In this document: positions 238 through 22,419 of the stretch, one piece after another
How positions within the stretch are numbered: position 1 is the first letter of the stretch
Layout of the letters: the number at the start of each line of letters is the position of its first letter
Origin: Chloroflexota bacterium
GTDB lineage: Bacteria; Chloroflexota; Anaerolineae; Promineifilales; Promineifilaceae
Direction: 5' to 3'
Assembly: GCA_018004935.1 (NCBI GenBank)
Contig: JAGNBF010000087.1
Span: forward strand, 1-34,287
DNA length: 34,287 bases
Made by a program: the position numbers and the translations under genes
The notes under the pieces: generated by a model
What the model was told of the DNA's origin: nothing
Databases searched by the model: none
Seen by the model: the letters and a program-made list of their open reading frames with translations, nothing else

Positions 238-1038
238 ATGACCGGAACACAATCCCTAATGGAACTGCTTGCCGACCAACCCGATGTTGACAGCACCGGC
301 TGGTTCGGCCAACTGTGGGACATCACCCGCGAGTTGAGCCAAAAATTAACCGCCCGTTTCGAGGTACACCCCGACGGCTCCACGGCCCAGTTCGCCAGCT
401 ACACCTCGCGGGATGGCAATGCGCGTGGTTCACTCAACACCTTCACCGGCCCCGAAATTGATTGGCTCGTCCATGCCCACATCGGCAACCCCAAACACAG
501 CTTCACCAACATGCACTTCACCGTCTGGCTCGGCCCCCAAACCAATGCCCCCCACTTTGGCATGGCCCTGGGAACCATGCCCGACATCTTCCTCTACTTC
601 GATTATGTTCCCCGTGTAGATTTGATGGTGGATTTAGAGTATCTCGACCGTTACTACGAGCCGGTGAGTGCCAAATGGCGCGAATTTCAGGACAACCCGA
701 ATTATCGCCCCTTTGTCAGCCGCACCATCTACATGCGCCAGGCGGTCTCCCAAACCGGCTTCGTCTACCTCGTCAAACCATCGGCGCAAGCCATTACCGA
801 AATCCGCGACCTGGCTCACTGGATGTTCGATGGTTTCCTGCACAACGTCAACACCGCCCCCCCCACCCCGGAACACGAACGCCCCGCCCTGGCCGCCCGC
901 GACCTACACATCCGCCGCACCGTCGCCGAGCGCGACCCCGCCAACGTCGTCGGCGAACAACTCTTCGGCAAAGAAATGGCCGACCAACTGGTACGCGGCC
1001 TCTGGGGCGGTGATAGACTGACCGCGCGGCCGCAGTGA
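238..1038 (+). CDS. Red chlorophyll catabolite reductase-like protein, copy 1
   Basis: The product (266 residues) resembles red chlorophyll catabolite reductase and ferredoxin-dependent bilin reductases, which reduce open-chain tetrapyrroles. What I recognise is the central block: an APHF segment (about 104-107), a beta strand running into YFDYVPRVDL (120-129), then DLEYLDRYYEP, followed by a PFVSRTIYMRQ segment and a C-terminal helix. In plant RCCR the same order reads DAPxF, LDLPPRKDL, PDYLxxFYED, PYxSSSLFxRS. The start at 238 is chosen because AGGAG lies six bases upstream; an in-frame ATG at 199 lies inside the repeated leader. The stop codon is part of a heptamer repeat. The gene heads a + strand cluster with a hydrolase, a PaO-like Rieske oxygenase, a second RCCR-like gene and an NYC1-like SDR. 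Family membership is by eye; substrate (red chlorophyll catabolite, bilin or another linear tetrapyrrole) is unknown. Confidence 0.72.
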   Translation: MTGTQSLMELLADQPDVDSTGWFGQLWDITRELSQKLTARFEVHPDGSTAQFASYTSRDGNARGSLNTFTGPEIDWLVHAHIGNPKHSFTNMHFTVWLGPQTNAPHFGMALGTMPDIFLYFDYVPRVDLMVDLEYLDRYYEPVSAKWREFQDNPNYRPFVSRTIYMRQAVSQTGFVYLVKPSAQAITEIRDLAHWMFDGFLHNVNTAPPTPEHERPALAARDLHIRRTVAERDPANVVGEQLFGKEMADQLVRGLWGGDRLTARPQ

Positions 1039-1099
1039 ACAGTGAACAGTGGACAGTGAACAGTGAACAGTGAACAGTGAACAGTGAACAGTAAACAGT
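1034..1099 (+). repeat. Heptamer tandem repeat (AACAGTG)n
   Basis: About nine near-perfect units of AACAGTG run from the stop codon of the preceding gene to 1099. One unit has GGACAGTG and one GTAAACAG. The TGA stop of the upstream gene is itself part of the first unit. It fills most of the spacer before the hydrolase gene and would be a likely site of slippage. Confidence 0.9.
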
Positions 1100-1128
1100 C
1101 TCTCAGTCTCTTAGTCTCTTAATCTCCC

Positions 1129-2079
1129 ATGATCCGCTCCCTCTACCACGCCACCCACATTCCAGAAGCCTCGCGGCCGCATGATAGCCTGCACCTTAAG
1201 GTATATTACCCTGCGGCCGCGAGCGGGAGCCAGGCCGAGCGCATGAGCGGCATCATCCCCGCCGACCTCAGCCACGCCCCGTTGCCCGTGCTCATCTTCT
1301 GCAACGGCATCAACGTAGGGGCCGAAAGTTACCACTGGTTAGCGGTGCAACTCGCGGCCGCGGCCAACCTCGTCGTCGTCCTCTACAACCACATCGCTCC
1401 AACATTACCCAACGTCATCGGGCTGACCCCCGCCATTGACCTGGCCCGCGTCCGCCCCGACACCTACGGCAGTGGCCCCACCTGCCCCGCCATCCAGCCC
1501 ATCCTGGACGCCCTGCACCATCTCCACACCAACCCGTCCAGCCCCTTATACAACGCCCTTGACCTGGAGACGATCATCCTGGGGGGACACTCCGCCGGGG
1601 GAACCATCGCCCTGCACAACGGCCTCTTCTTCCCGGCGGTCAAAGCCGTCTTCGCCTACGCCGGACACACGATGGCCTCTACCATGCTCGGCTTCCCGCC
1701 CGGAACGGTGCTAAACATTGCCGACAAACCTACCCTGCTCCTACGCGGTGATCAAGATGGGGTGATTGCGGCCAGTCGCGGCCGCTATGGCCCCGAAACC
1801 GAGGACAAAGACCCCGTCGCCCGCACCTTCGACGAAGCCTACCCGGAACCCCATCACAGCCCAGCCTACGATGCCCTGATAACAGGGGCGAACCACTTTT
1901 CCATCGTGTATCCTTTAGATGAGACAAGCGGCCGCTCCTTCCTGGATCAGCCCACCACCCGTCCCGACGCCGACATCCGCGCCGACATCGTGACCTTGAT
2001 CACCACCTTTATCACCAAACACATCCGGGGCCAAAACCTTGAACTCACCGCCCCCCACACCATCATCCGGCACAAATAA
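1129..2079 (+). CDS. Alpha/beta hydrolase with chlorophyllase-like serine motif
   Basis: A 316-residue serine hydrolase of the alpha/beta fold. The nucleophile elbow is GHSAGG (Ser155), the acid is probably Asp208 or Asp210 in LRGDQDG, and the histidine is His256 in GANHF; the oxyanion strand is LPVLIFCNG (52-60). Plant chlorophyllases, which remove phytol from chlorophyll, have GHSRGG at the elbow, and dienelactone hydrolases are related. Given its place between an RCCR-like and a PaO-like gene, de-esterification of a tetrapyrrole is a reasonable inference, but an unrelated ester or lactone is possible. The ATG at 1129 has no clear ribosome binding site; I keep it because the first beta strand (LHLKVYYPA, 21-29) would be lost with the next ATG. 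The gene carries five GCGGCCGC octamers (1173, 1213, 1354, 1778, 1928) read in more than one frame. No signal peptide is seen. Confidence 0.88.
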   Translation: MIRSLYHATHIPEASRPHDSLHLKVYYPAAASGSQAERMSGIIPADLSHAPLPVLIFCNGINVGAESYHWLAVQLAAAANLVVVLYNHIAPTLPNVIGLTPAIDLARVRPDTYGSGPTCPAIQPILDALHHLHTNPSSPLYNALDLETIILGGHSAGGTIALHNGLFFPAVKAVFAYAGHTMASTMLGFPPGTVLNIADKPTLLLRGDQDGVIAASRGRYGPETEDKDPVARTFDEAYPEPHHSPAYDALITGANHFSIVYPLDETSGRSFLDQPTTRPDADIRADIVTLITTFITKHIRGQNLELTAPHTIIRHK

Positions 2080-2163
2080 GAGGACCTCACTTCTATCCCT
2101 GTTCCCCCCATCCGTGGCTAATCTCACCAAAATTCCCATGACCCTACGACACACCAAGAGAAA

Positions 2164-2247
2164 TGAAGATAGCGAGTATGCGAGTAGCGAGTATGCGAGT
2201 AGGCGTTCACTCGCCACTCGCCAACTCGCCACTCGCCTACTCTCACA
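2164..2247. repeat. GCGAGTA tandem/inverted repeat, copy 1
   Basis: The left half repeats GCGAGTA units (GCGAGTATGCGAGTA), then GGCGTTCACTCGC, then the right half repeats the complement (CCACTCGCCAACTCGCC). The whole can fold into a long imperfect hairpin. A longer relative is at 21357-21451 with the same central GCGTTCACTCGC. It lies in the spacer 5' of the Rieske gene. Confidence 0.85.
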
Positions 2248-2298
2248 CACTCACCCCAAATCCGTCTTAATCCATGTACCAAAACCGAGGAGTCAAAC

Positions 2299-3456
2299 AT
2301 GCTGAAAAACTTTTGGTGGCCGCTTGAATTTGCCCATGTCGTCAAAGACAAACCCATCCGCGTAACCGCACTCGAACAAGAATTCGTCCTGTACCGCACC
2401 CCCGATGGCTCCGCCCACGTCCTGAGCGACCTCTGTGTCCATCGCGGCGGCGCCCTCTCCGATGGCTGGATGAGCGGCAACTGCATCGTCTGCCCCTACC
2501 ACGGTTGGGAATACCAGGCCGATGGCGCGTGTAGCAAAATTCCCGCCAACCAACCCGGCGTCGCCGTACCCAAAAAAGCCCGCGTAGATGCCTACCCCAC
2601 CGTCGAAAAATACGGCTACATCTGGGCCTTCCTCGGCGACCTGCCCGAAGCCGAACGCCCCCCGCTCCCCGACTTACCCTACTTTGACGATCCCCAATTC
2701 AAAGTGGTGCGCGGCACCTTCGAGTGGCCCGTCTACTACGAACGCGCCCTGGAAAACAGCCTCGACGCCGCCCATGCCCCCTTCGTGCATGGCGGGGCCT
2801 TCGGCAACCGGGACGAACCCGAAATTCCCGACTACGAAGTCACCAACTACCCCTACGGTGGCGAGATGGTCGTCACCCTCAAACCCAAACGCAAAAACAT
2901 TCCCGGCCTCTGGAAATGGCTCTACAAACAAGAAGCCGAACCCAAAGGCGTTCGCACCCGTGCCGCTTTCTGGATGCCCTGCATGACCCTGCTCGAAGTC
3001 ACCTTGCCCATGGGGTTGATGGTTCTGTTCAACTTCCATCTCCCGGTAGATGAATTCAAAACCATCACCAAATGGACCCAACTCCGCACCTTCTTCAAAG
3101 GCAACTGGGCCGATGGTGACGCCGTTAAGCGGGTATTCAAAATCTTCAACCAGGATTACCCCATCGTCCTGGCCCAACGCCCCGAACTCCTGCCCTACGA
3201 CATCGGCGCTGAACTCTCCGTCAAATCAGACGGCATCCAGATCGCCTATCGCCGGATGCGGCAAAAATACATTGACATGGGGTGGCAAATTGACATCCAC
3301 CGCATCAAAAAGGAGTTCGGTCGCCAACACGCCGTCGTTATCCCCTCACCCGCCCGCCGCGAAGTCCCCGAACTGGCCCAGGCGTGGGTGTTGAAGGAAG
3401 TGCCGACTACCGAAGTGAAGATGCGGGGGAACTCGGGGAATTCAGAGGAACTCTAG
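2299..3456 (+). CDS. Rieske non-heme iron oxygenase, pheophorbide a oxygenase-like
   Basis: A 385-residue oxygenase of the Rieske/mononuclear iron type. The N-terminal [2Fe-2S] domain has Cys46-x-His48 and Cys65-x2-His68 (CVHRG and CPYHGW). The catalytic domain has Asn153-x2-Asp156-x2-His159-x4-His164 (NSLDAAHAPFVH), the usual iron-ligand and electron-bridge segment. The opening FWWPLEFAHVV and the layout recall the PaO/CAO/VanA-type monooxygenases rather than dioxygenase alpha subunits. In plants PaO opens the ring of pheophorbide a. The CxxC and C-terminal membrane anchor typical of plant PaO are not seen here, so the protein is probably soluble and the substrate may differ. The start follows CCGAGGAG by several bases. 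No reductase partner is adjacent; the flavin-reductase domain encoded at 6508 is the nearest candidate. The gene contains no GCGGCCGC, unlike its 5' neighbour. Confidence 0.92.
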   Translation: MLKNFWWPLEFAHVVKDKPIRVTALEQEFVLYRTPDGSAHVLSDLCVHRGGALSDGWMSGNCIVCPYHGWEYQADGACSKIPANQPGVAVPKKARVDAYPTVEKYGYIWAFLGDLPEAERPPLPDLPYFDDPQFKVVRGTFEWPVYYERALENSLDAAHAPFVHGGAFGNRDEPEIPDYEVTNYPYGGEMVVTLKPKRKNIPGLWKWLYKQEAEPKGVRTRAAFWMPCMTLLEVTLPMGLMVLFNFHLPVDEFKTITKWTQLRTFFKGNWADGDAVKRVFKIFNQDYPIVLAQRPELLPYDIGAELSVKSDGIQIAYRRMRQKYIDMGWQIDIHRIKKEFGRQHAVVIPSPARREVPELAQAWVLKEVPTTEVKMRGNSGNSEEL

Positions 3457-3555
3457 GAACTCGTAGGAACTCCCTCTCCATCCGTGTTTCTTTCATCCGT
3501 GGCTATTTCCCAGGGGGGTTCCCCAAGACCTGCAACACATCAGGATGAACGAAAA

Positions 3556-3586
3556 TTTGTAGGGCGATTTGGCAAATCGCCCCACA
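3556..3586. repeat. TTTGTAG-family palindrome, short form
   Basis: TTTGTAGGGCGATTT and AAATCGCCCCACA form a single hairpin with GGC between the arms. It matches half of the larger elements at 3702 and 28302. Confidence 0.8.
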
Positions 3587-3701
3587 TGGATAACTTACTT
3601 TCTATCCGTGTTCCTATCCATCCGTGTTTCTTTCATCCGTGTTTCTTTCATCCGTGGCTATTTTCCCAGCAGTTCCCCAGCAACAAAGTGTGGAACAGAA
3701 A

Positions 3702-3757
3702 TTTGTAGGACGATTTTGTAAATCGTCCACCGGGCGATTTACAAAATCGCCCTACAT
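3702..3757. repeat. TTTGTAG-family nested palindrome
   Basis: The outer ends TTTGTAGG and CCTACA are complementary. The interior holds two half-size hairpins (CGATTTTGTAAATCG and GCGATTTACAAAATCGC), so either one long or two short stems can form. It ends about 16 bases before the start of the second RCCR-like gene and so would lie in its leader. Confidence 0.85.
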
Positions 3758-3773
3758 TTTCAGAGAAAACAAT

Positions 3774-4490
3774 ATGTCTTTACCTCAAGAACTTTCGCAA
3801 GAAACATTGACCAAAATCATAACCCGGTTTGGGATGACCGAAGTGGGTGCGCCGTATATGAGCCTCACCAGTCCCATGAGTCCGGCTCCGGTGGGGGCGC
3901 TCCGGCTGTTCGGCGGCAACAAAGTTCACAAAATGGTCTACATCAGCCTCACCGTGCCACCCATTGGGTTAGATTCCCACATGATCTTCGCCTTCACCCC
4001 ACCCGAGAGCCACATCCCCCACTTCACCCTGGACTCAGTTTTGGCCGGGCCACACTTCGCCTTCCACCTCGACCTGATCCCCCGCGCCGACCTGGGGGCC
4101 AATCTGGCTTATCTCAACGCCATCTTTGACCCCCTCACCCCCATTTTCGAGGCCGCCAAACAGATCGAAGGGTTGACACCGGCCCAACTTGGCCCCAAAC
4201 AGTACGCCCTGATGTCCCCCTGGATGTTGGCCTACCGGGCCAACGAATCCGCCTTCACCCAGATTCAGACGCCAGTGCATGGGTACCTGGAACATTGGTT
4301 TAATCTGGTAGAGAACGGCATCCCGGCTGAGGCCATGCCAACGGGTGATTTCGCCCAGCGGGATCAACTCAACCGTAACGCCATCTTTGATCCCACGGTG
4401 GATAAGGTTTGGGCACAAGTGGCTCGTTTGGTGGGGGAAGAAACCAGCGAAAAGATGCGACATATTTTGAGAAATCAGGCGGTAGAGTAA
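3774..4490 (+). CDS. Red chlorophyll catabolite reductase-like protein, copy 2
   Basis: A 238-residue protein of the same fold family as the product of 238-1038 but clearly divergent. Shared marks in order: HIPHF (80-84; APHF in copy 1), a strand ending FHLDLIPRADL (97-107; YFDYVPRVDL in copy 1), LAYLNAIFDP (111-120; LEYLDRYYEP in copy 1), then a helical C-terminal half. RCCR of plants has LDLPPRKDL and PDYLxxFYED here. The start is set at 3774 because the upstream in-frame part is repeat DNA; the ribosome binding site (CAGAGAAAAC) is weak. The following gene begins three bases after the stop, so the two are almost certainly co-transcribed. Having two RCCR-like proteins in one cluster suggests either successive reductions or a two-subunit reductase. 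Function is inferred from motifs only. Confidence 0.68.
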   Translation: MSLPQELSQETLTKIITRFGMTEVGAPYMSLTSPMSPAPVGALRLFGGNKVHKMVYISLTVPPIGLDSHMIFAFTPPESHIPHFTLDSVLAGPHFAFHLDLIPRADLGANLAYLNAIFDPLTPIFEAAKQIEGLTPAQLGPKQYALMSPWMLAYRANESAFTQIQTPVHGYLEHWFNLVENGIPAEAMPTGDFAQRDQLNRNAIFDPTVDKVWAQVARLVGEETSEKMRHILRNQAVE

Positions 4491-4493
4491 ACA

Positions 4494-5432
4494 ATGAGCG
4501 AACAACCATCCAATTGGCAAAAAAGCATAGAAGGGGAATGGCACGGGTATCCTTCTATTTTTGATGTGAACGGCAATCATTGTGGTTATAACAAGGTGTA
4601 CCGCTCGTCTACGTTTCAGGACGGGCAAACCACTTACATGATGAACACAAAAATCCAAGAAGGGCTGGGGGAGCTTCTGCCCCGCCTGGAAGTGTCGGAC
4701 ATTTTCCTGTTTGGGGTGATTGATAGCGATCAGGATCGGATTTATCTGGGGCCGGATTTTATTGGGGCGGGACATCCGTATGGCACCCTGGTAGATGCCC
4801 ATTACTACTCGCCCGGCTGGACGGGGGATTTGCGGACAATGGTGCATATTTTGCCGGACGGGGAAACACAGGTCTATTCATCCCTCATTTATGATGGCCC
4901 CACATTGTTTACGGTGTTTAACGGCATTTACAAGGTGGCGTTTGATTATCACAGCAACCCGGCAACAAAGACACGAATTGATGCTTTTTGTGAAACGGAG
5001 CGCATCAATGGGCGCAAGCCGCACATTTTGCCATCCAAAAAGAAGGGAACCTGGACAGGGGAGATGATCGTCTGTGGGGCGGATCAAAAGCAGGTGGGGG
5101 TGAATCAGGTGGAGATTGTTTATACGCCGCTGGATTTGCTCCGGGCGGAGATGCAGGTGCGGATCAGTGGGGTGTTGGAGAAAGAGTACACCTTCAAGCG
5201 GTATCGTAACCAGGCCAAACATTATTTCGAGGGGCCGGATGTGTATGGCAACAGCATGGGGTATGGTCGAGCGTTGTATACGTCACAACATTTTTACGGG
5301 GAAGCGTTGAAGATCAAGGGGCGGGAGTTCCTGATTGATGATGATTTTACTCTGAGTGTAGTGTGGCAATTTTTTAAGTCGGATAAGATGTTATATACGA
5401 CGTTTGGGGTACTGAATTGGAATGAAGGGTAA
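4494..5432 (+). CDS. Unrecognised beta-rich protein, possibly calycin-like
   Basis: I do not recognise this 312-residue protein. It has no signal peptide or membrane segment. The sequence is rich in beta-strand patterns and seems to hold two similar halves, each opening with a G-x-W-x-G motif (GEWHGYPSIFDVNG near residue 13; GTWTGEMIVCGADQ near 185), as in two consecutive lipocalin-like barrels. That would suit a binding or chaperone role for a hydrophobic tetrapyrrole, but this is speculation. The start follows the second RCCR-like gene by three bases, which argues for a shared task. The gene is visibly less C-rich at third positions than its upstream neighbours and has no GCGGCCGC; its 3' end and the spacer to 5499 are AT-rich. 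Confidence 0.6.
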   Translation: MSEQPSNWQKSIEGEWHGYPSIFDVNGNHCGYNKVYRSSTFQDGQTTYMMNTKIQEGLGELLPRLEVSDIFLFGVIDSDQDRIYLGPDFIGAGHPYGTLVDAHYYSPGWTGDLRTMVHILPDGETQVYSSLIYDGPTLFTVFNGIYKVAFDYHSNPATKTRIDAFCETERINGRKPHILPSKKKGTWTGEMIVCGADQKQVGVNQVEIVYTPLDLLRAEMQVRISGVLEKEYTFKRYRNQAKHYFEGPDVYGNSMGYGRALYTSQHFYGEALKIKGREFLIDDDFTLSVVWQFFKSDKMLYTTFGVLNWNEG

Positions 5433-5498: not shown

Positions 5499-6290
5499 AT
5501 GAGTAAGACGATTGTGATTACGGGTTCGACGAAGGGGATTGGGTATGGGCTGGCTGAGGCGTTTTTGAAGCGGGGGCATAAGGTGGTGATCAGCGGCCGC
5601 AAACAATCCCCCCTTGATGAAGCTGTCGCCAGGCTCGCGGCCGCGTACCCACCCCACCTTATCGCCGGTCATCTGTGCGACGTAACCCGCCTGGCCGACA
5701 ACGAGGCCCTCTTCGCCTTCGCCCAAAAAACCTTTGGCCGCGTAGACATCTGGATCAACAACGCCGGTATCGCCCACCCCATGATGAACACCTGGGAATT
5801 GCCCGTTGAATTGATACAAGAGGTGGTCAACGCCAACGTCCTGGGTTCACTTTACGGTTCCCGCGTGGCTATCAAAGGGATGTTAGCCCAAGAGGGGGGC
5901 GGCTGGCTCTATAACCTGGAAGGGTTTGGCTCTAATGGCCGGGTGCGGGCGGGCATTTCGGTCTATGGCATGACCAAAGCGGGGACCGCCTTTTTGGGTA
6001 AATCATTGGCGCAAGAGGTAAAAGGAAGCAACGTCAAAGTCGGCACGATTCAGCCGGGCATGGTCATCACCGACATGGTGGTGGGGCAGTATAAAACCCC
6101 GGCCGAATTAGACAAGGTCAAACCGATTTTCAACATCATCGCCAGCCGCCTCGAAGATGTGGTTCCGGTCCTGGCGGAGAAAATCCTGGCTAACGAGAAG
6201 AATGGTAAGCTGATTGAGTTCCTGCCCCGCTGGAAACTGTTGTTACGCTTCCTGGCGGCTCCCTTTAGCAAACGGAACGTTTTTGATTAG
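5499..6290 (+). CDS. Short-chain dehydrogenase, NYC1/NOL (chlorophyll b reductase)-like
   Basis: A 263-residue SDR. The cofactor motif is TGSTKGIG (8-15), the NNAG motif is at 87-90 in VDIWINNAG, and the catalytic residues are Ser145, Tyr156 and Lys160 (YGMTK). Several segments go beyond generic SDRs and follow plant NYC1/NOL: WINNAG, YNLEGFGSNG where NYC1 has NMDGAGSGG, VYGMTKAG, IQPGMVITDMV for SPGMVLTELL, IFNIIASRLEDV for MFNIICELPETV, and a hydrophobic C-terminus RWKLLLRFLAAPF for PRILLALVTSWL. NYC1/NOL reduce the 7-formyl group of chlorophyll b. Start: GGAG lies four bases upstream. Codon usage changes abruptly at the GCGGCCGC at 5593, from G/T-ending to C-ending codons. Activity on chlorophyll b is not shown; a related formyl or keto tetrapyrrole is possible. 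Confidence 0.88.
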   Translation: MSKTIVITGSTKGIGYGLAEAFLKRGHKVVISGRKQSPLDEAVARLAAAYPPHLIAGHLCDVTRLADNEALFAFAQKTFGRVDIWINNAGIAHPMMNTWELPVELIQEVVNANVLGSLYGSRVAIKGMLAQEGGGWLYNLEGFGSNGRVRAGISVYGMTKAGTAFLGKSLAQEVKGSNVKVGTIQPGMVITDMVVGQYKTPAELDKVKPIFNIIASRLEDVVPVLAEKILANEKNGKLIEFLPRWKLLLRFLAAPFSKRNVFD

Positions 6291-6507: not shown

Positions 6508-7890
6508 ATGGGATTTGAAGCACAAGATTTTAAGCGGGCGATGGCCCAATTTGCTTCGGGGGTGACGGTGGTCACGACCCGGTATGGTGAGACGCCTATC
6601 GGCATTACCGCCAGTTCGTTTACCAGTTTGAGCCTGGAGCCACCCCTGGTGTTGGTATCGCTGAGCAAGAAGTTGTTTACGCACAACGCCATTGCCGAAA
6701 GTGGCTTTTTTGCCGTGAACGTGCTGAGTGCCCACCAGTTAGAACTGGGGATGCGTTTTGCCGGTATGCGGCCGCAACTCCCCGACCGTTTCGCCGGTTT
6801 AACCACCCACCGGGCCAGCACCGGCGCACCCATCCTGCCCGATTCCCTGGCCTGGGTAGATTGCACCGTCTGGGCCATGTACGACGGCGGCGACCACACC
6901 ATTTTCGTCGGCGAAGTGCAAGATTTGTCCGTTTCCGACCTGGATACGCCACTCCTCTACCACAACCGGCTGTGGCGACGCTCCGAAGCGTTGGATGTGC
7001 CCACCGTGCCCGTCGAGGCCACCCTGATTGAAGTGGGTCTGCGCGATGGCATCCAACGGGAAGAAGCGTTCATCCCTACCGAGGTTAAACTGGCGATTGT
7101 ACAAAAATTGGTTGACGCCGGGCTGAAGGAGATTCAAGTCACCTCGTTTGTGAACCCTAAGATTGTGCCCCAGATGGCCGATGCGGAACAGCTCGCGGCC
7201 GCATTGCCCCCTTGTAACGATGTGGTCTACTCGGCGCTGGTGCTCAACATGAAAGGGCTGGAGCGTGCGGCCGCGGCTGGTATCCCCAAGGTGGACATGG
7301 GCGTGCCCGCTTCCGAAACCCTGGCCCGCAAAAACGCCAACACCACCATCGAGGCCGGTATGGCGGAGATGGCCGAAATGGTGCAAAAGGCCCGCCAACA
7401 CGGCATGAAAGTCCGCGCCGGGGTGCAAGTCGCCTTTGGTTGCGCCTACGAAGGCAAAATCGAACCGGCCAAAGTTGTCAATCTGGCCCGCCGCTTTCTG
7501 GCCATGGGCATTGACGAACTCTCCCTGGCCGATTCCGCCGGGCTGGGCAACCCGCAACTGATTCGCCGCCTCGTCCAGGAAATTTTACCCCTGGCCGGGC
7601 CGGTTCCGGTAGTGCTCCACCTGCACGACACCCGTGGCCTGGGATTAGCCAATCTCCTCGCCGCCCTGAAATCGGGCGTCACCCATTTTGACACCTCTTT
7701 CGGTGGCCTGGGCGGTTGCCCGTTTATCCAGACCGCCAAAGGCAACATCGCCACCGAAGACACCGCCCACATGCTACACGAAATGGGCATCCACACCGGC
7801 CTCAACGTCGCCCAAATCGCCGCCCTCTCCAGAGAAATAGAAACCTACCTCGGCAAACCCCTACCCGCCAAGATGCACCACCTTATTTGA
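6508..7890 (+). CDS. Flavin reductase domain fused to HMG-CoA lyase-family domain (probable citramalyl-CoA lyase)
   Basis: One open frame of 460 residues joins two normally separate proteins. Residues 1-160 are a FMN-binding flavin reductase-like domain (AMAQFASGVTVVTTR, GITASSFTSLSLEPPLVLVSL, FAVNVLS). Residues 170-460 are an HMG-CoA lyase-type TIM barrel: EVGLRDGIQREE with Arg179/Asp180, VTSFVNPKIVPQMADA, AFGCAYEGKI, HLHDTRG (371-377) and the cysteine loop GGLGGCPF (Cys404) with GNIATED. In Chloroflexus aurantiacus R-citramalyl-CoA lyase belongs to this family and makes acetyl-CoA and pyruvate. The downstream hydro-lyase subunits and CoA-transferase fit that reaction. Start: AGGATAGGA upstream of ATG 6508. 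The role of the fused flavin domain is unclear; it might serve the Rieske oxygenase upstream. HMG-CoA itself or a related 3-hydroxyacyl-CoA is an alternative substrate. Confidence 0.93.
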   Translation: MGFEAQDFKRAMAQFASGVTVVTTRYGETPIGITASSFTSLSLEPPLVLVSLSKKLFTHNAIAESGFFAVNVLSAHQLELGMRFAGMRPQLPDRFAGLTTHRASTGAPILPDSLAWVDCTVWAMYDGGDHTIFVGEVQDLSVSDLDTPLLYHNRLWRRSEALDVPTVPVEATLIEVGLRDGIQREEAFIPTEVKLAIVQKLVDAGLKEIQVTSFVNPKIVPQMADAEQLAAALPPCNDVVYSALVLNMKGLERAAAAGIPKVDMGVPASETLARKNANTTIEAGMAEMAEMVQKARQHGMKVRAGVQVAFGCAYEGKIEPAKVVNLARRFLAMGIDELSLADSAGLGNPQLIRRLVQEILPLAGPVPVVLHLHDTRGLGLANLLAALKSGVTHFDTSFGGLGGCPFIQTAKGNIATEDTAHMLHEMGIHTGLNVAQIAALSREIETYLGKPLPAKMHHLI

Positions 7891-7933: not shown

Positions 7934-9157
7934 ATGTCCCAAACCCTCGCCGAACGCATCATCTCCCAACACGCCCAACAGCCTGTCACCGCTGGCGACA
8001 TCGCCATTGTCGAGGTGGATGGGGTCATGGCGACCGATGCCACCGCCCCGTTAGCCATCCAGGCGTTCCGGGCGATGGGGGGCAAAAAGGTATGGCACAA
8101 GGACAAAGCCTTCCTCGTTATTGACCACGCCGCCCCGGCCCCCAATGAACGAGTGGCGAATTTGCACAAACTGATGCGCGACTTCGCCCGCGAACAGGAG
8201 ATCAAGCTGTACGATGTGGGCGCGGGCATTTGCCACCAACTGATGGTCGAAAATGGGCATGTCCGCCCCGGTGATCTGTTCCTGGGAGCCGATTCGCACA
8301 CGCCAACCTACGGCGCGTTGGGGGCAATGGCCGTGGGGGTCGGCTCGACTGACCTGGCCGGGGTGTTACGCACCGGGCAAACCTGGCTCAAAGTGCCGTC
8401 CACCGTTTTGTTCACCCTGGACGGCCAACTGGCCCGAGGCGTCACGGCTAAAGATGTGATCCTGTTTCTGGTGCAGAAAATGGGGGTCGAAGGAGCGGTG
8501 TACGAGGCGATTGAGTTTAACGGCCCGGCGGTGGAACGGATGACGCTGGCGAGCCGTATGGTGCTGACGAACATGGTGGCCGAAATGGGGGCCAAGACGG
8601 GGTTTGTGGACACCACGGGATTGGTGCTGGATGCGCCCTTTGTTCACCAACAGGTTGACGAAAGGGCTACCTTCCGGGCCAGATTTACAGTGGATTTGTC
8701 GGATCTGCGGCCGCAAATCGCCTGCCCGCACTCTCCCGACAACGTACTCCCCCTGGATGAACTGGTGGGCACAAAAATAGACGCGGCCTTCATCGGTTCC
8801 TGTACCAACAGCCGCCTGGAAGATTTGCACGCGGCCGCGGACATCGTGCGTGGTCATCAGCTCAAGGCACGGCTCCTCATCGCGGCCGCGTCCCAGGCCG
8901 TATTCAACGCCGCCCTTAACGATGGCACGGTTCACACCCTCACCACTGCCGGAGCCGTGTTCATCACCTCTGGCTGTGGCCCCTGCGTCGGCACCCACCT
9001 GGGCGTACCCGGCGATGGCGAGACGGTCATCTCTTCCACCAACCGCAACTTCCAGGGACGTATGGGCAACCCGAAGAGTAACATCTACCTGGCGTCACCA
9101 GCAGTGGTTGCGGCCGCGGCCGTCGCGGGGGAGATTGTTGATCCTGAGGATGTTTGA
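7934..9157 (+). CDS. Aconitase-superfamily hydro-lyase, large subunit (3-isopropylmalate dehydratase type)
   Basis: A 407-residue large subunit of the LeuC/homoaconitase type. The [4Fe-4S] ligands are Cys290 in FIGSCTNSR and Cys348/Cys351 in SGCGPCVGTH. Other family marks are DHAAPAP, GAGICHQ, GADSHTPTYG and GNPKSNIYLASP. The length fits the archaeal-type LeuC (about 410-430) rather than the enterobacterial one (about 465). It probably pairs with the small subunit encoded at 9258. Because neighbours are a citramalyl-CoA lyase-like protein and a CoA-transferase, interconversion of citramalate with mesaconate, citraconate or itaconate is more likely than leucine synthesis, for which no other gene is present. 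The ATG has no evident ribosome binding site. Five GCGGCCGC or near-adjacent octamers fall in the last third (8707, 8831, 8882, 9110), where codons become C-rich. Confidence 0.93.
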   Translation: MSQTLAERIISQHAQQPVTAGDIAIVEVDGVMATDATAPLAIQAFRAMGGKKVWHKDKAFLVIDHAAPAPNERVANLHKLMRDFAREQEIKLYDVGAGICHQLMVENGHVRPGDLFLGADSHTPTYGALGAMAVGVGSTDLAGVLRTGQTWLKVPSTVLFTLDGQLARGVTAKDVILFLVQKMGVEGAVYEAIEFNGPAVERMTLASRMVLTNMVAEMGAKTGFVDTTGLVLDAPFVHQQVDERATFRARFTVDLSDLRPQIACPHSPDNVLPLDELVGTKIDAAFIGSCTNSRLEDLHAAADIVRGHQLKARLLIAAASQAVFNAALNDGTVHTLTTAGAVFITSGCGPCVGTHLGVPGDGETVISSTNRNFQGRMGNPKSNIYLASPAVVAAAAVAGEIVDPEDV

Positions 9158-9257: not shown

Positions 9258-9752
9258 ATGTCCCACATCTTAACCGGCACAGCCCACGTCTACCCCATTG
9301 ACAACATAGACACCGACCGGATCATCCCCGGCAAATACACCAAAACCCTCGACCTCACCCACCTGGCCGGGCACGTCCTGGAAGACCTCGATCCCACCTT
9401 CAGCCAGCGCGTGCAACCGGGTGACATCCTGGTGGCGGGGCGCAATTTTGGGTGTGGCTCCAGCCGGGAACAAGCCCCCCTCGCCCTCAAAGCGGCCGGT
9501 GTCTCCGCCGTCATTGCCCACTCCTTTGCCCGGATTTTCTTCCGCAACGCCATCAACATCGGCCTGCTCGTCATCGAATTGCCGGATCATGCCCTTAATA
9601 ACGGTGCTCAGGTGACGATTGACAGTGTGAACGGGCTGGTGGAGAGCGAAGGCATCACCTATCAGGCCACCAAAATGCCCCAGGTCATGCTCAAAATCCT
9701 CAATGCCGGGGGGCTGATCAACTTTCTCAATCAAGAAGGGGGCTACCGATGA
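9258..9752 (+). CDS. Aconitase-superfamily hydro-lyase, small subunit (LeuD type)
   Basis: A 164-residue swivel-domain subunit. Recognisable parts are NIDTDRIIPGKY (17-28), the substrate-recognition segment GRNFGCGSSREQAP, and SFARIFFRNAINIGL. Length matches the short LeuD/DmdB class. It would form a heterodimer with the product of 7934-9157. Its TGA overlaps the ATG of the CoA-transferase gene (ATGA at 9749-9752), so the two are translationally coupled. The 100-base spacer to the large subunit holds the AACTCATAGGAACTCGTAGG direct repeat, two ATCCGTGTT phrases and a short (CACCCTGT) repeat; no ribosome binding site is obvious. Confidence 0.93.
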   Translation: MSHILTGTAHVYPIDNIDTDRIIPGKYTKTLDLTHLAGHVLEDLDPTFSQRVQPGDILVAGRNFGCGSSREQAPLALKAAGVSAVIAHSFARIFFRNAINIGLLVIELPDHALNNGAQVTIDSVNGLVESEGITYQATKMPQVMLKILNAGGLINFLNQEGGYR

Positions 9753-10924
9753 ACCGTCCACTCACCGGTCTGCGGGTGCTGGAGTTCACCCACGCCGTGC
9801 TTGGCCCCACCACCGGCCTCATCCTGAGCGACCTGGGGGCCGAGGTGATTCGTGTCGAGCCGGTTCCGGGGGGCGACCCCACCCGCACCCTGAAAGGGTT
9901 TGGTCTAGGCTATTTCCCCTTTTTCAACCGGAACAAAAAAAGTATCGGCGTGAATTTGAAGGATGTTCGCGGCCGCGATCTCATCACCCACCTGCTCCAC
10001 ACCACCGATATCCTCATCGAAAATTACGCCCCCGGTACGATGGAGCGGCTCCACCTGGGGTATGACGACCTATCGCCCCACTTTCCCCGCCTCATCTACT
10101 GCCAGCTCAAAGGTTTCCTGCCTGGCCCCTACCAGACCCGCACCGCCCTGGACGAAGTGGTGCAAATGATGAGCGGCCTGGCCTACATGACCGGGCCGGT
10201 CGGTCAGCCATTGCGGGCGGGGGCTTCCGTCATTGATGTGACCACCGGTATGATGGGGGCGATGGCTATCCTGATGGCCTTGCGCGAGCGGGACAGCACC
10301 GGTCAGGGGCAACTCGTGCGCTCCGCCCTCTTTGAAACCGCCGCCTTCCTGATGGGGCATCATCTGGCTTACGCCGCTGTGGCTCAAGAGCCGGTTCCGC
10401 CCATGCCCGCCCGTGTCAGTGCCTGGGCCATCTACCACCAGTTCGAGACGAGCAACGGGCAACGGGTGTTTATCGGCGTGACGAGCGATAAGCAGTGGGA
10501 GAAATTTTGCCACACCTTCGACCGGGCGGATTGGCTCCACGATCCCCGGCTCAAAACGAACAACAACCGCATCACTGAACGGGAATGGCTTTTGCCTGCC
10601 GTGCGCGACATGGTGGCCGCGTACCCTCTGGCTGAGGTTCTGCGCCGTTGCGAACAGGCCCAACTCCCGTTTTCCCCCATCGCCCACCCCGAAGATTTGT
10701 TTACCGATGAACAGCTACACCAGGGGGGCAGTCTCATCCCCACCACCCTGCCCAACGGCGAGCAGACCGTTTTGCCCGCGCTCCCGTTCCGGCTGGACTC
10801 GTTGGTTATGCCAGAAAACGCCACCCTGCCCACCTACGGCGAACACACCGAGGCCATTTTGCTGGAGTTGGGTTACGCCGCAGAGGCGATACAAGCATTA
10901 CGCGCCACCCAAACCATTGCTTGA
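9749..10924 (+). CDS. Family III (CaiB/BaiF) CoA-transferase
   Basis: A 391-residue class III CoA-transferase. The N-terminal nucleotide-binding part reads GLRVLEFTHAVLGPTTGLILSDLGAEVIRVEP; the catalytic aspartate is probably Asp135 in TALDEVVQMMSG, followed by GVTSDKQWEKFC typical of the second domain. Enzymes of this family move CoA between carboxylic acids through an aspartyl-CoA anhydride. In Chloroflexus a succinyl-CoA:citramalate CoA-transferase works with R-citramalyl-CoA lyase, and this gene closes an operon with a lyase of that family and a hydro-lyase, so activation of citramalate, mesaconate or itaconate is the best guess. It overlaps the LeuD-type gene by four bases. A GCGGCCGC at 9969 marks a change to strongly C-ending codons. 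Confidence 0.93.
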   Translation: MNRPLTGLRVLEFTHAVLGPTTGLILSDLGAEVIRVEPVPGGDPTRTLKGFGLGYFPFFNRNKKSIGVNLKDVRGRDLITHLLHTTDILIENYAPGTMERLHLGYDDLSPHFPRLIYCQLKGFLPGPYQTRTALDEVVQMMSGLAYMTGPVGQPLRAGASVIDVTTGMMGAMAILMALRERDSTGQGQLVRSALFETAAFLMGHHLAYAAVAQEPVPPMPARVSAWAIYHQFETSNGQRVFIGVTSDKQWEKFCHTFDRADWLHDPRLKTNNNRITEREWLLPAVRDMVAAYPLAEVLRRCEQAQLPFSPIAHPEDLFTDEQLHQGGSLIPTTLPNGEQTVLPALPFRLDSLVMPENATLPTYGEHTEAILLELGYAAEAIQALRATQTIA

Positions 10925-11889: not shown

Positions 11890-13074
11890 CTAAATCCTTT
11901 CTTCTAGCATGGAGGCGCGTAACAGGTAAGCACGAGCCTGGGCCGGGTCCGCGGCCGCGTTCCTCAAACCCTCATTCCGTTTCTGCCGCTCTTCCGCCGT
12001 GTTCATCACCATATTTTTGTATTGCTGATCGCTGTACAACTGCACCGACTCAATGGCATATTGTCGCCTGACCCTGGTGTATTCATCCAACAGGTTATCC
12101 GGCTCCCCCTGGTGAATGCGGACGAGGGCAGAGGTGAGCGCGGCCGCGTCGTGAATCCCACTGTTCATCCCCATCCCCCCGGAGGGGTTGTTGTTGTGGG
12201 CCGCATCCCCCACCAACACGGCCCGCCCCACCCGGAAGGTATCGGCGACCCGCTGGTGGACCCGGTACAGTTGGATGGTTTTAATGGTGAATGGGGGAAC
12301 AACGCCGAAGAAGGTGTGGATGCGGCCGCGTAAATTCTCCTCGCGCAAAGCCACCGTCTCATCCTCATCATTCTGCATCCGAAACACAATCCGCACAATA
12401 TCCGGCAGGTTCAAAATAATGACCCACTCCTGCGGATCAAAAATGTAACAAACCTGGGCCGCAGACGGCAATAAATCACTCGTTTTCAGATCATTGCCAA
12501 TCAGCAAAAATCGGTCTTCATACGTTTTGCCCTGAAACCCGATTCCCAATTGTTTCCGCACCGTGCTGTGCGTGCCATCTGCCCCACACAGATACGCTCC
12601 CTCTCGTTCTACAATGCCCTTCTCCGTAACAAACCGGGCCGAAATATGCGTCCCCTGATCAGTGAAATCCACCAGCCGGTGTCCCATGTGAACACGCCCG
12701 GTTGCGGCCGCTTCGACCGCCGGTTTCAGCAAGCGGGTGGCAATATGTTGGGGGCATTGGAGCCGAAACGGGTAGGCCGTGTCCTGAGCGATGGCCTTGT
12801 AATCAAAATCGGCAATGAGGCGGCGCGGCTCCCGCTCCCAATATTGCAGACGATTCACCTGATACCCATGCTGGAGAAGAGCATCGGCCACCCCCCATTG
12901 CTGGAACAATTCCAGCGTCTTAGGGTGGAAGGTACTGGCCCGAATTTGCGTATTCAGTTCGGCATCCGCCTCAAAAACTTCGGCCGGAATGCCCGCCCGG
13001 GCCAACGCCAGGGCCAATGACAGGCCCACCGGCCCGGCCCCGGCAATAAGAATAGGTTTTTCAGATGTGATCAT
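11890..13074 (-). CDS. FAD-dependent aromatic-ring monooxygenase (PHBH/UbiH fold)
   Basis: A 394-residue group A flavoprotein monooxygenase. It has the N-terminal dinucleotide motif IAGAGPVGLSLALALARAG (10-28), the DG motif CGADGTHSTVRKQLG (163-177) and the GD motif VLVGDAAHNNNPSGGMG (286-302). Such enzymes hydroxylate aromatic or polyene substrates with NAD(P)H. No substrate can be read from the sequence. I choose ATG 13074, preceded by GGTGG; an in-frame extension to 13161 would run through a perfect palindrome and is probably not translated. Four GCGGCCGC octamers occur (11951, 12140, 12322, 12704). The gene stands alone between tpx and a defective kinase gene; a link to the tetrapyrrole cluster is only positional. 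Confidence 0.94.
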   Translation of the reverse strand: MITSEKPILIAGAGPVGLSLALALARAGIPAEVFEADAELNTQIRASTFHPKTLELFQQWGVADALLQHGYQVNRLQYWEREPRRLIADFDYKAIAQDTAYPFRLQCPQHIATRLLKPAVEAAATGRVHMGHRLVDFTDQGTHISARFVTEKGIVEREGAYLCGADGTHSTVRKQLGIGFQGKTYEDRFLLIGNDLKTSDLLPSAAQVCYIFDPQEWVIILNLPDIVRIVFRMQNDEDETVALREENLRGRIHTFFGVVPPFTIKTIQLYRVHQRVADTFRVGRAVLVGDAAHNNNPSGGMGMNSGIHDAAALTSALVRIHQGEPDNLLDEYTRVRRQYAIESVQLYSDQQYKNMVMNTAEERQKRNEGLRNAAADPAQARAYLLRASMLEERI

Positions 13075-13113
13075 AGTCGCCACCGGCCTTTGCAGGGAAT
13101 TTCTAAATAAGAT

Positions 13114-13153
13114 TTGGTTTGTAGTGACCGCTAAAGCGGTCACTACAAACCAA
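13114..13153. repeat. Perfect 18-base palindrome of the GTAGT family
   Basis: TTGGTTTGTAGTGACCGC and GCGGTCACTACAAACCAA flank a TAAA loop. It lies 40 bases upstream of the monooxygenase start and resembles a single-hairpin member of the element at 10937. Confidence 0.92.
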
Positions 13154-13161
13154 GATGCCAA

Positions 13162-18545: not shown

Positions 18546-19810
18546 GGGGTGATATTTTCTGCCCGGTATACGGGGGGCATAGGCCGGGTCATCTGTTGTT
18601 GGAAGTGGGCCACCAGCGGGGTTTTGTGGCGTTGGAGAATGCCTTCGGCGTCAAAGGTGCCATCGTAGAGGCCCAGATGAACCAGAAAGGAAGTGAGGGG
18701 TTTGCGGCCGCGGCGATAAGTCCAATCCACCATCGTCAAAAAGGGAAACCAGGTGTAACCCACCACTGGCACACCCTGCGCCCGTAAACCACGGATGGAG
18801 TCAAGCGTCTGATCCATCCAACGGGCACGGCCCGCCACATCTCGTTTGGCCGATGTTTCCGTCACGATCAAGGGCATCTGGTAGCGGGTGTAGGCTCGCT
18901 CGATGACCTCACCCAGCTTTGACCCATGCGTGGAGCGCAAAATGTGACGGGGCAGACCATTGGTTCGTTGTGCCCACTCCACATAAGACCAGGGGTAAAA
19001 ATTCACCCCCAAAAAATCAAAGGTTACGGCCTGGGCGCGGAACCAATCCAGTTCACGAGGCGTGACCCCATGCGCTTGCAGGTAAGCGGCCAGAATATAA
19101 TTTTCATCTACCCGGCCAGTCGCCAGATCAAAACAGAGGTATTGGGTGGCGTTCGCTTCTTCTACCAGCGGGGCCAGGGCTTCCACCTTGCTCCAGATGT
19201 GCCACAGGGCCTCGACCTGCACGGTGATGGCGTCGGGTTGTTCAGCCTTGAGGGCCTGGGTTGTCAAAACCATCCCTTTGGCCAGCGCCAGGGCGACTTT
19301 GACAAAACCATCTTCGCCCACGAGATACGGCGGCCAATCGCCCCGCCGTCCGCACAAATCGGCGTTGATCATCGGCTCGTTGAGGGGGGTGTAATGGCGC
19401 ACCAGGGAACCATAACGCTGGGCGACTGCACCGGCGTATTCGGCCACGCGGTAGGGGTATTGGCTATTGATGAAGCTGTTGTCTAACCAGAGGGGTGTGC
19501 CGTAATGAATCAAATCAAGGATGGGAACGATGCCCTTGACATTAACCAGATAATCAATCACTTCATCTGTCCAGCGCCAATCCCAGACATTGGCTTTAGG
19601 CTGAACCTTGTACCAGGGAATGCCCCAGCGCAGGGCTTGTATTCCCAGGTCGGCGGCCAGGTCCAAATCTTGTTTCCAATATTGATAATGCTGGATCAGT
19701 TGGTATTCATCCAGGGCACGCCGTCCTGGGCGCACATGGGGCACGAAGGTGTTTTCGATGCCGGTGGCCCAGCCAAAACCGGCCGGGTCAAGTGAAAAAA
19801 GTTGGGTCAT
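18542..19810 (-). CDS. Glycoside hydrolase family 1-like beta-glycosidase
   Basis: A 422-residue TIM-barrel enzyme of clan GH-A, GH1-like. The acid/base is Glu145 in TPLNEP and the nucleophile Glu318 in IVTETS; FGWATGIEN near the N-terminus and RWGIPWYKVQP (71-81) fit GH1. Unlike classical GH1 enzymes (about 450 residues), the C-terminal ENG/W motif is not seen and the protein is short, so substrate preference may differ. No signal peptide. The start has AGGAG seven bases upstream, supplied by a copy of the leader repeat that also precedes the gene at 238. The gene overlaps GH2 by four bases. Confidence 0.92.
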   Translation of the reverse strand: MTQLFSLDPAGFGWATGIENTFVPHVRPGRRALDEYQLIQHYQYWKQDLDLAADLGIQALRWGIPWYKVQPKANVWDWRWTDEVIDYLVNVKGIVPILDLIHYGTPLWLDNSFINSQYPYRVAEYAGAVAQRYGSLVRHYTPLNEPMINADLCGRRGDWPPYLVGEDGFVKVALALAKGMVLTTQALKAEQPDAITVQVEALWHIWSKVEALAPLVEEANATQYLCFDLATGRVDENYILAAYLQAHGVTPRELDWFRAQAVTFDFLGVNFYPWSYVEWAQRTNGLPRHILRSTHGSKLGEVIERAYTRYQMPLIVTETSAKRDVAGRARWMDQTLDSIRGLRAQGVPVVGYTWFPFLTMVDWTYRRGRKPLTSFLVHLGLYDGTFDAEGILQRHKTPLVAHFQQQMTRPMPPVYRAENITP

Positions 19811-19933
19811 AGGGAACTCCTACGAAAATAGCCACGGATGACGGGAACACGGATAGGAAGAAACACGGATGGGGATGAAAATGGTGGCGTTATTTTCATC
19901 CAACTTGGTGCGCGATGTGCTCATGGGGAACTC
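19811..19933 (-). repeat. Leader repeat, copy 3, in front of the GH1 gene
   Basis: Read on the minus strand, this matches the leader at 121-237 almost without gaps over more than 100 bases: a GGGAGTTCCCCATG start, GCACCAAG, AACGCCACCATTTTCATC, ATCCGTGTTTCTTCC, CATCCGTGGCTATTTTCG, then GTAGGAG and the gene's ATG. As in that copy, the ATG at 19926 opens a frame of exactly 34 codons whose TAG overlaps the ribosome binding site of the next gene. Confidence 0.85.
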
Positions 19934-19989
19934 CCGCTGGTGTATTGGGTAGATTCATGGTTTTACAGGGGCACTGCTTTAAGACCTGA

Positions 19990-21327: not shown

Positions 21328-21356
21328 AAACCCAGGGCGCACCAGGGATGAAAACA

Positions 21357-21451
21357 GCGAGTAGGCGAGTAGCGAGTAGGCGAGTAGCGAGTAGGCGAGT
21401 AGCGAGTTTGCGAGTGGGCGTTCACTCGCTACTCGCAAACTCGCCACTCGA
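21357..21451. repeat. GCGAGTA tandem/inverted repeat, copy 2
   Basis: About seven GCGAGTA or GCGAGTAG units form the left arm; GGGCGTTCACTCGC is the turn; the right arm repeats CTACTCGC and CCACTCG. The structure is longer than the copy at 2164 but has the same centre. It lies in the 5' leader of the GH43 gene. Confidence 0.88.
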
Positions 21452-21500
21452 AACTTATTTTCACAGGCGTACCAGGGGGAACCATTCTGTTCTCTCATTG

Positions 21501-22388: not shown

Positions 22389-22419
22389 GGTAACGGCTCT
22401 CCTTGTCGTTAGGCACTTA

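What the first reader, a model, noticed from the sequence alone, without database searches (positions are those of the whole stretch)
238..4490. Two divergent RCCR/bilin-reductase-like proteins in one cluster
The products of 238-1038 and 3774-4490 share the order H/APHF, xFDYVPRVDL or xLDLIPRADL, LEYLDRYYEP or LAYLNAIFDP, but differ widely elsewhere and are separated by two other genes. Known RCCR systems use one reductase. A pair suggests two successive reductions, two substrates, or a heteromeric enzyme.
Basis: partly seen in the sequence, partly recalled or inferred. Interest (0 to 1): 0.5.

Follow-up and report, generated by a model that had tools for sequence, protein, structure and literature searches.

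The report
Paired bilin-reductase-like enzymes in bacteria
A bacterial gene cluster carries two distantly related proteins of the family that plants use to break down chlorophyll, and its relatives nearly always keep both, which points to an uncharacterised bacterial route for taking apart chlorophyll-like pigments.

Summary
Product A (238-1038) is an RCCR-family protein: PF06405, 64.8 bits, cut-off 24.9. Product D (3774-4490) is below that cut-off, but its predicted structure (pLDDT 94.7) has the RCCR/bilin-reductase fold: RCCR is the top Foldseek hit, E=3.1e-12; Z 22-23 to PebB, PebA, HY2, RCCR. A and D are homologous (BLASTP 3e-10; profiles 8e-14). An A-family protein accompanies D in 28 of 30 genomes and in 30 of 30 further Micromonosporaceae loci, there in the order nitrilase-A-hydrolase-Rieske-D-calycin-SDR. 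Their active sites differ consistently: D has the aspartate pair of bilin reductases; A has Ala at the first acid and keeps the second. Best reading: a catabolic pathway for a chlorophyll-type tetrapyrrole, in which a Rieske enzyme opens the ring and A and D make two different reductions. Against it: the Rieske gene is not of the plant PaO type, and Staygreen is found in none of 34 genomes. Substrate and order are inferred; a heteromer was not tested. I found no description in the searched library.

The parts
238..1038 (+). A: RCCR-family protein, 266 aa; Ala110 where plant RCCR has Glu and FDBRs have Asp, Asp233 (DPAN) kept
   Evidence: PF06405 64.8 bits, cut-off 24.9; AtRCCR chain 3agb E=2.9e-18 with the family profile; acids
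1129..2079 (+). B: alpha/beta hydrolase with GHSAGG; candidate esterase (dephytylation or demethylation, inferred)
   Evidence: PF12697 29.7 bits, cut-off 26.3; motif; no PDB sequence match at E<=0.01
2299..3456 (+). C: Rieske non-haem iron oxygenase, VanA_C type; candidate ring-opening oxygenase (inferred)
   Evidence: PF00355 and PF19112 over cut-off; CVHRG, CPYH and N-x2-D-x2-H-x4-H motifs; nearest PDB sequences NdmA, SxtDIOX, SxtT, DdmC
3774..4490 (+). D: second RCCR/FDBR-fold protein, 238 aa; Asp87 and Asp210 at the FDBR catalytic pair
   Evidence: AF2 pLDDT 94.7; Foldseek and VIA-align; D87 and D210 invariant in 31 of 31 rows
4494..5432 (+). E: two-barrel calycin (BFA1/DUF3598-like fold); candidate tetrapyrrole binder or isomerase (inferred)
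   Evidence: AF2 pLDDT 87.9, first barrel partly 59-70; Z 19.3 to 2o62 and 19.0 to BFA1 5yvf (Foldseek)
5499..6290 (+). F: short-chain dehydrogenase/reductase
   Evidence: PF00106 123 bits; an F match next to E in 30 of 30 fetched Micromonosporaceae loci
6508..7890 (+). G: fusion of flavin reductase and HMG-CoA-lyase-like domain
   Evidence: PF01613 and PF00682; NF004283 hydroxymethylglutaryl-CoA lyase subfamily model 311.7 bits, cut-off 246
7934..9157 (+). H: aconitase-superfamily hydratase large subunit (LeuC/homoaconitase type)
   Evidence: PF00330; subfamily models NF001614, TIGR02086 and TIGR01343 over cut-off
9258..9752 (+). I: hydratase small subunit, LeuD/DmdB family
   Evidence: TIGR02087 subfamily model 186 bits, cut-off 108.95
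9749..10924 (+). J: class III (CaiB-type) CoA-transferase
   Evidence: PF02515 346.4 bits
11890..13161 (-). S: FAD monooxygenase whose orthologue adjoins the second RCCR-family gene (A') in relatives
   Evidence: PF01494; 76% identity over 391 aa to L077:10518-11717 beside A'

Best explanation
The locus encodes part of a bacterial catabolic pathway for a chlorophyll-type closed tetrapyrrole taken from outside. B removes an ester group. C, a Rieske oxygenase, opens the macrocycle with O2 to a bilin. A and D are two cofactor-free, ferredoxin-driven reductases of the RCCR/FDBR fold that act on different double bonds of that bilin, one after the other, as PebA and PebB do on biliverdin. D uses the canonical aspartate pair. 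A uses only the second aspartate and so must protonate its substrate differently. E carries or isomerises the bilin, and F and S modify it. In Chloroflexota, G-J and neighbouring hydrolases finish the ring fragments as substituted maleates, through hydration, CoA transfer and retro-aldol cleavage. Shown here: homology, D's predicted fold, conserved linkage and co-occurrence, and the acid pattern. Inferred: substrate, reactions, order, electron donor and the fate of fragments.
For: A is RCCR by curated model. D has the fold. A-family presence with D: 28 of 30 genomes, 30 of 30 loci. Order R-A-B-C-D-E-F-U in 30 of 30 fetched Micromonosporaceae loci, and C beside D in 31 of 31 first-round loci (L032 left out). 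Acid pattern: Asp/Asp in 33 of 33 D rows; Ala at acid 1 in 17 of 17 A and 15 of 16 A' rows; 30 of 30 A and 30 of 30 D in the new set, one D read by eye. The Asp pair is essential in GtPEBB (PMC6755814, passages). A Rieske oxygenase followed by RCCR is the plant order (PMC4950323, passages; the ester-hydrolysis step before it is recalled). Haem oxygenase PF01126 gave no match in the 27 genomes other than the 7 Actinoplanes/Paractinoplanes, so the usual biliverdin source is lacking there. 28 of 33 D carriers gave no reaction-centre PF00124 match, so own pigment is an unlikely substrate in most.
Against: C shows no PaO domain; its C-terminal half is VanA_C and its nearest solved relatives include N- and O-demethylases. 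Staygreen (Mg-dechelatase) was found in 0 of 34 genomes, although the same search finds it in 6 of 199 genomes of the class. No ferredoxin turned up among the genes scanned around D. A lacks an acid that is critical in FDBRs, so A may not be a reductase. Two D genomes (G407, G424) show no A-family match, and in Chloroflexota A or A' is often not next to D. G's lyase domain passes an HMG-CoA lyase subfamily model and H/I pass broad subfamily models, so G-J could serve an unrelated acid pathway. There is no substrate evidence of any kind.
Confidence: 0.5

Rival explanations
1. A and D form a heteromer: D is the catalytic subunit, and A, lacking the first acid, is a regulatory or substrate-binding subunit.
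For: Near-constant co-occurrence; Ala in place of the first catalytic acid in all A rows.
Against: A keeps the second Asp and many invariant residues. In about half of the Chloroflexota genomes (11 of the 30, plus G112 and G325) the only A-family member is the A' type; in the 8 of 8 A' regions fetched it lies beside a nitrilase and a FAD monooxygenase rather than beside D. G134 has A' without D.
Confidence: 0.15
2. A and D work in parallel on two different substrates, for example chlorophyll a- and b-type or plant and bacterial pigments, not in series.
For: Different active-site acids; separate genomic modules for A' and D in some genomes.
Against: Fixed order A-B-C-D-E-F in 30 of 30 fetched Micromonosporaceae loci, and near-constant pairing, are easier to explain by one pathway.
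Confidence: 0.15
3. The substrate is haem or a bilin such as biliverdin, and the Rieske enzyme demethylates or hydroxylates rather than opening a ring.
For: D's best PDB sequence match is the biliverdin reductase HY2 (E=6.5e-4). C's nearest solved relatives include N- and O-demethylases. All 7 Actinoplanes/Paractinoplanes searched have PF01126 haem oxygenase.
Against: No PF01126 match in the other 27 genomes (other haem-degrading families not tested). A groups with plant RCCR, not with Cyanobium FDBRs (support 86, long branches).
Confidence: 0.15
4. The cluster makes, rather than degrades, a tetrapyrrole-derived compound.
For: Conserved in Micromonosporaceae, D in 37 of 300 sampled genomes, a family rich in natural-product clusters (recalled).
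Against: In Chloroflexota it is joined to hydratase, CoA-transferase, lyase, amidohydrolase and transporter genes typical of catabolism.
Confidence: 0.05

Closest known systems
Plant PaO/phyllobilin pathway (pheophorbide a oxygenase + red chlorophyll catabolite reductase)
   Same: A Rieske oxygenase and an RCCR in one system; A is over the RCCR cut-off
   Different: Two RCCR-fold proteins; the Rieske enzyme is VanA_C type without a PaO domain hit; Staygreen found in 0 of 34 genomes; bacterial operon, in Chloroflexota joined to acid catabolism
PebA/PebB ferredoxin-dependent bilin reductases
   Same: Two reductases of one fold acting one after the other on one bilin (PMC6755814, abstract and passages); D has the same Asp pair
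   Different: PF05996 cut-off not met by the window's A or D (D family); no PF01126 haem oxygenase in 27 of 34 genomes
Bacterial pre-PcyA proteins and RCCR-like outgroup sequences (Rockwell et al. 2023, PMC10151467, abstract and passages read)
   Same: Bacterial members of the superfamily, some in Chloroflexi
   Different: Those clusters hold globins, V4R and Fe-S proteins; no globin or V4R domain turned up in the genes scanned here, and the passages read describe no paired RCCR operon
Dimethylmaleate hydratase route of nicotinate fermentation (recalled; DmdB is named only in TIGR02087)
   Same: LeuD/DmdB-family hydratase genes beside CoA-transferase and lyase genes
   Different: Joined to tetrapyrrole-type enzymes; specificity untested

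Membership tests
RCCR (PF06405) | A: curated score cut-off 24.9 bits | tested here: met
   64.8 bits, residues 30-253 on profile 6-249
RCCR (PF06405) | D: curated score cut-off 24.9 bits | tested here: not met
   11.8 bits, E=0.14; best E among 31 members 0.0024 (bits not shown there)
RCCR/FDBR fold | D: alpha/beta/alpha sandwich matching solved members over most of the chain | tested here: met
   Z 22.6 to RCCR over 225 residues, 23.1 to PebB and PebA; RCCR top in Foldseek
RCCR/FDBR fold | A: fold seen in a model | not tested
   No model made; inferred from PF06405 and the AtRCCR match E=2.9e-18
FDBR (PF05996) | Curated cut-off 31 bits | tested here: not met
   A 17.2 bits, D no match at E<=1; 2 of 31 D-family members match at E<=0.1, best E=0.00055, bits not shown
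FDBR | D: catalytic Asp pair (Asp-99/Asp-219 of GtPEBB) | tested here: met
   Asp at both aligned positions in 33 of 33 rows
FDBR | A: catalytic Asp pair | tested here: not met
   Ala at the first position in 17 of 17 rows, Asp at the second
RCCR | Ferredoxin-dependent reduction of red chlorophyll catabolite | not testable with these tools
   Needs purified protein and substrate
Pheophorbide a oxygenase (for C) | Rieske domain plus PaO domain | tested here: not met
   Rieske met; C-terminal half is VanA_C, and no PaO domain is listed at E<=1
Chlorophyllase (for B) | Chlorophyllase family match | tested here: inconclusive
   Only general alpha/beta hydrolase PF12697 over cut-off; PF12740 at 16.5 bits, below 28
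DUF3598/BFA1 calycin (for E) | Two-barrel calycin fold | tested here: met
   Z 19.3 and 19.0 over 245 and 260 residues; first barrel modelled with lower confidence

The most novel reading that the evidence does not exclude
Non-phototrophic bacteria mineralise chlorophyll completely. A Rieske enzyme opens the ring, three RCCR-fold lineages (A, A', D) strip its conjugation in successive reductions, the bilin is cut to maleimides, and imidase, amidase, dialkylmaleate hydratase, CoA-transferase and lyases feed every ring into central metabolism.
Probability: 0.25. Interest if true: 0.9.

Novelty: new variant of a known kind. Interest (0 to 1): 0.68.

Why it matters
Chlorophyll is made and destroyed on a very large scale (general knowledge), yet the enzymes by which heterotrophic bacteria might break it down did not turn up in the open-paper library I searched. 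This cluster gives concrete genes to test in culturable Actinoplanes relatives. It may also help to show how the RCCR and bilin-reductase families diverged, since it keeps two or three distant branches working side by side.

Tried and rejected
1. Own chlorophyll turnover of a phototroph: rejected for most carriers. Photo_RC PF00124 was found in 6 of 34 genomes, that is 5 of 33 D carriers, and not in the window's genome. Type I centres were not tested, and many genomes are incomplete assemblies.

2. Staygreen as the first step: 0 of 34. That empty result had no positive control, so I ran the class: 6 of 199 at E<=0.001, 5 of them over the family's cut-off. Dechelation would have to be spontaneous, done by others, or unneeded.

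3. Haem oxygenase as the bilin source: 7 of 34, all Actinoplanes/Paractinoplanes.

4. X, a gene of unknown family before A or B in Chloroflexota relatives, as a third RCCR-like protein: rejected. hhalign gives no match of X to A or D, and X groups with the calycins; the safe figure for that is phmmer of the X of L005 against an Ep member, 4.5e-10.

5. The A-D value (E about 1e-112) is an artefact: the iterative searches merged A and D. I discarded it and used the separate alignments. The X, Ep and E values may be inflated in the same way; phmmer of E against Ep members (down to 5.8e-12) is the safe figure.

6. Upstream half of the operon in the window's genome: one query (Ep) gave nothing, without a positive control. 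The window starts at the contig's first base, so a gap in assembly is as likely as absence.

7. The tree is the quick version with long branches and warnings about them; the careful one did not finish. Only D as one group (99) and A + A' + plant RCCR together (86) are used. Tomato HY2 and L053 were left out of it.

8. The reading direction of several loci was wrong; redone, and nothing is used from 64.

9. Co-occurrence counts leave out L032 (a Cyanobium record, matched weakly) and L008 (same genome as L007). Whether A occurs without D in Micromonosporaceae was not tested.

10. E as a specific tetrapyrrole binder: not shown. Besides BFA1/DUF3598, its second barrel matches an outer-membrane barrel (Pla, Z 14.1) above nitrobindin (13.4), CpeS (11.5) and UnaG (8.2), so much of this is general barrel likeness.

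11. Promoter and terminator scans found no excess over shuffles; no Rfam match at the gathering scores. A search for maleimide and dimethylmaleate hydratase in the library gave only PMC7318184 of use in the rows listed.
Full report
What is there. The window is one whole contig, C75, of a 7.98 Mb genome. Its closest relatives are Chloroflexota (names), so I take it as one. Its first 11 kb hold ten genes on one strand: A RCCR, B alpha/beta hydrolase, C Rieske oxygenase, D RCCR-like, E unknown, F SDR, G flavin reductase fused to an HMG-CoA-lyase-like domain, H and I large and small subunits of an aconitase-type hydratase, J CaiB-type CoA-transferase.

Are A and D one superfamily? A passes the curated RCCR model (64.8 bits, cut-off 24.9), and its family profile finds Arabidopsis RCCR in the PDB at 2.9e-18. 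D alone gives nothing significant (E=0.14; no PDB match). Built from 31 orthologues, its profile finds phytochromobilin synthase (HY2) at 6.5e-4. The AlphaFold2 model of D is confident (pLDDT 94.7, pTM 0.92). Foldseek ranks RCCR first (E=3.1e-12, TM 0.77), followed by HY2, PebA, PcyA and PebB. VIA-align gives Z 23.1 to PebB and PebA, 23.0 to HY2, 22.6 to RCCR, 21.9 to PcyA and 16.1 to coproporphyrinogen oxidase; the first rows are tied. A and D match each other directly (3e-10) and by separate profiles (8.3e-14). No model of A was made.

Do relatives carry both? A scan of one genome for each of 84,980 species with D gave 32 loci; the scan starts from short patterns and is not exhaustive. Leaving out L032 (Cyanobium), C is beside D in 31 of 31, B is found in 27 of 31, and E, in whole or part, in 28 of 31. 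The loci without E (L008, L014, L016) stop within about 450 bases of D, and three of the four without B (L007, L018, L026) begin inside or just before C; L017 lacks B with sequence to spare. In the 30 genomes behind these loci, the A profile matches 29 at 1e-5. In G407, though, the only match is D itself, and G424 has none, so 28 of 30 have a true A-family member (E of 1e-67 or better). In 400 sampled Chloroflexota, D occurs in 3, the window's genome included, and PF06405 in 4, the same 3 plus G134. A second sample of 400 drawn around G134, overlapping the first, finds A-family members in G134, G112 and G325. In 300 sampled Micromonosporaceae, D occurs in 37. Seven of these were already in hand with A in place; in the other 30, A is present in 30 of 30. 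There the order nitrilase-A-B-C-D-E-F-(Y)-U holds, with Y found in 29 and the FAD monooxygenase S in 16.

The pairing is looser in Chloroflexota. A stands directly before B in the window and in L002, L003, L005, L008, L014 and L015; in L022 it lies downstream, after a transporter gene. In other genomes the A-family member is on another stretch or contig.

Three branches. A-family members fall into an in-operon type (A) and a second type (A'). In the 8 of 8 A' regions that I fetched (of 15 A' genomes seen), A' lies near a nitrilase-type hydrolase and a FAD monooxygenase. In two of them, L077 and L080, this module runs on into the D operon, about 15 kb away. The window's own FAD monooxygenase (11890-13161) is 76% identical to the one beside A' in L077. 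G401 and G402 have A, A' and D together. In a quick tree D is one group (SH-aLRT 99), and A, A' and plant RCCR group together (86) against three Cyanobium FDBRs. Branches are long and rooting is unsure.

Active sites. In GtPEBB the pair Asp-99 (on strand S4) and Asp-219 (on the loop between two helices) is essential. Asp-99 is described as critical in all FDBRs, with vascular-plant HY2, which has Asn, as the only exception (PMC6755814, passages). In the alignment, D has Asp at both positions in 33 of 33 rows. In the D model the first lies on strand 83-91 and the second in the loop before helix 212-220. A has Ala at the first position in 17 of 17 rows. A' has Ala in 15 of 16 and Val in one (L062). 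The second Asp is kept in all A rows and in the 15 A' rows that cover it. Plant RCCR has Glu and Asp there; the numbers Glu154 and Asp291 are recalled and come from no call. In the 30 new loci A has Ala in 30 and D has Asp in 30, one of the latter read from the printed sequence because the pattern missed it; the DPAN motif of A was matched in 29 of 30. So the two proteins differ, in the same way across two phyla, at the residue that in FDBRs contacts and protonates the bilin. I take this as the best evidence for two different roles. It equally allows A to be non-catalytic.

The neighbours. E folds as two calycin barrels like DUF3598 and BFA1 (Z 19.3 and 19.0). Its second barrel also matches an outer-membrane barrel (Pla, 14.1), nitrobindin (13.4), the phycobiliprotein lyase CpeS (11.5) and, weakly, the bilirubin-binding UnaG (8.2), so the likeness to tetrapyrrole binders is suggestive only. 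Paralogues of E, here called Ep and X, stand upstream in Chloroflexota. C has Rieske and mononuclear-iron ligand motifs but is of the VanA_C type, nearest in the PDB to NdmA, SxtDIOX, SxtT and DdmC, not of the plant PaO type. In Chloroflexota relatives the operon goes on from the hydratase, CaiB transferase and lyase domain to an allantoinase/hydantoinase-like amidohydrolase and an MFS transporter, and upstream to HpcH-type aldolase, isochorismatase-type, EutA/arylmalonate decarboxylase-type and nitrilase-type genes. The window itself has neither the amidohydrolase nor the upstream genes. This set would suit imide opening, amide hydrolysis, hydration, CoA activation and cleavage of substituted maleates. 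H, I and the lyase domain of G pass broad subfamily models, the last of them for HMG-CoA lyase; none of the proteins passes an equivalog cut-off. The chemistry is therefore inference, and a different acid pathway is possible. Mono- and dipyrrolic chlorophyll products are reported from leaves and herbivores (PMC7318184, outline and abstract).

Substrate tests by absence. Haem oxygenase PF01126: 7 of 34 genomes, all Actinoplanes/Paractinoplanes. Photo_RC: 6 of 34. Staygreen: 0 of 34, against 6 of 199 in the class. These disfavour biliverdin outside the Actinoplanes group and own-pigment turnover in most carriers, and leave dechelation unexplained.

Literature. RCCR-like sequences of Schekmanbacteria are noted as falling in the outgroup to FDBRs (PMC10151467, abstract and passages); RCCR is used as an outgroup again in PMC13193486 (passages). 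Bacterial Staygreen homologues are said to have no known physiological role (PMC8531759, passages). RCCR is described as cofactor-free, with a ferredoxin-driven reduction (PMC4950323, passages). The listings of searches of a library of open papers showed no description of a bacterial operon with two RCCR-fold proteins; some listings were cut at 10 or 20 rows. Subscription papers and preprints are not held, so this is weak evidence of novelty.

Verdict. The pair is real, conserved and divergent at the active site. My estimates: same superfamily 0.97; partners in one pathway 0.9; tetrapyrrole catabolism 0.75; chlorophyll-type substrate 0.55; successive reductions 0.5.

Noticed in passing
window 15792-25318: GH2, GH1-like and GH43 genes with an ABC transporter (two permeases, solute-binding protein): a polysaccharide utilisation cluster, which would fit a life on plant or algal remains.
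   Followed up: no
window 28585-33699: 1704-aa ORF with no Pfam match at E<=0.001.
   Followed up: no
window 3558-3586 and 3732-3752: Two similar GGGCGATTT hairpins in the C-D gap, possible copies of a small intergenic repeat.
   Followed up: no
window 6508-7890: Flavin reductase fused in frame to an HMG-CoA-lyase-like domain; relatives L015, L019, L020 and L021 match only the lyase part.
   Followed up: partly
chains 8xqw_H and 8xks_P: A chain of the algal Ycf2-FtsHi / Orf2971-FtsHi motor complex matches the RCCR/FDBR fold of D (Z 19.7 and 19.3), an unexpected place for this fold.
   Followed up: no
L076 (G134): A genome with reaction-centre genes has A' with nitrilase and FAD monooxygenase but no D match.
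   Followed up: partly
L062 (G410): A divergent A' copy with Val at the first acid and a long branch.
   Followed up: no
L019-L022: A second C-type Rieske gene lies before B in the Roseilinea/Thermoflexus-like loci, so these have two such Rieske genes.
   Followed up: no
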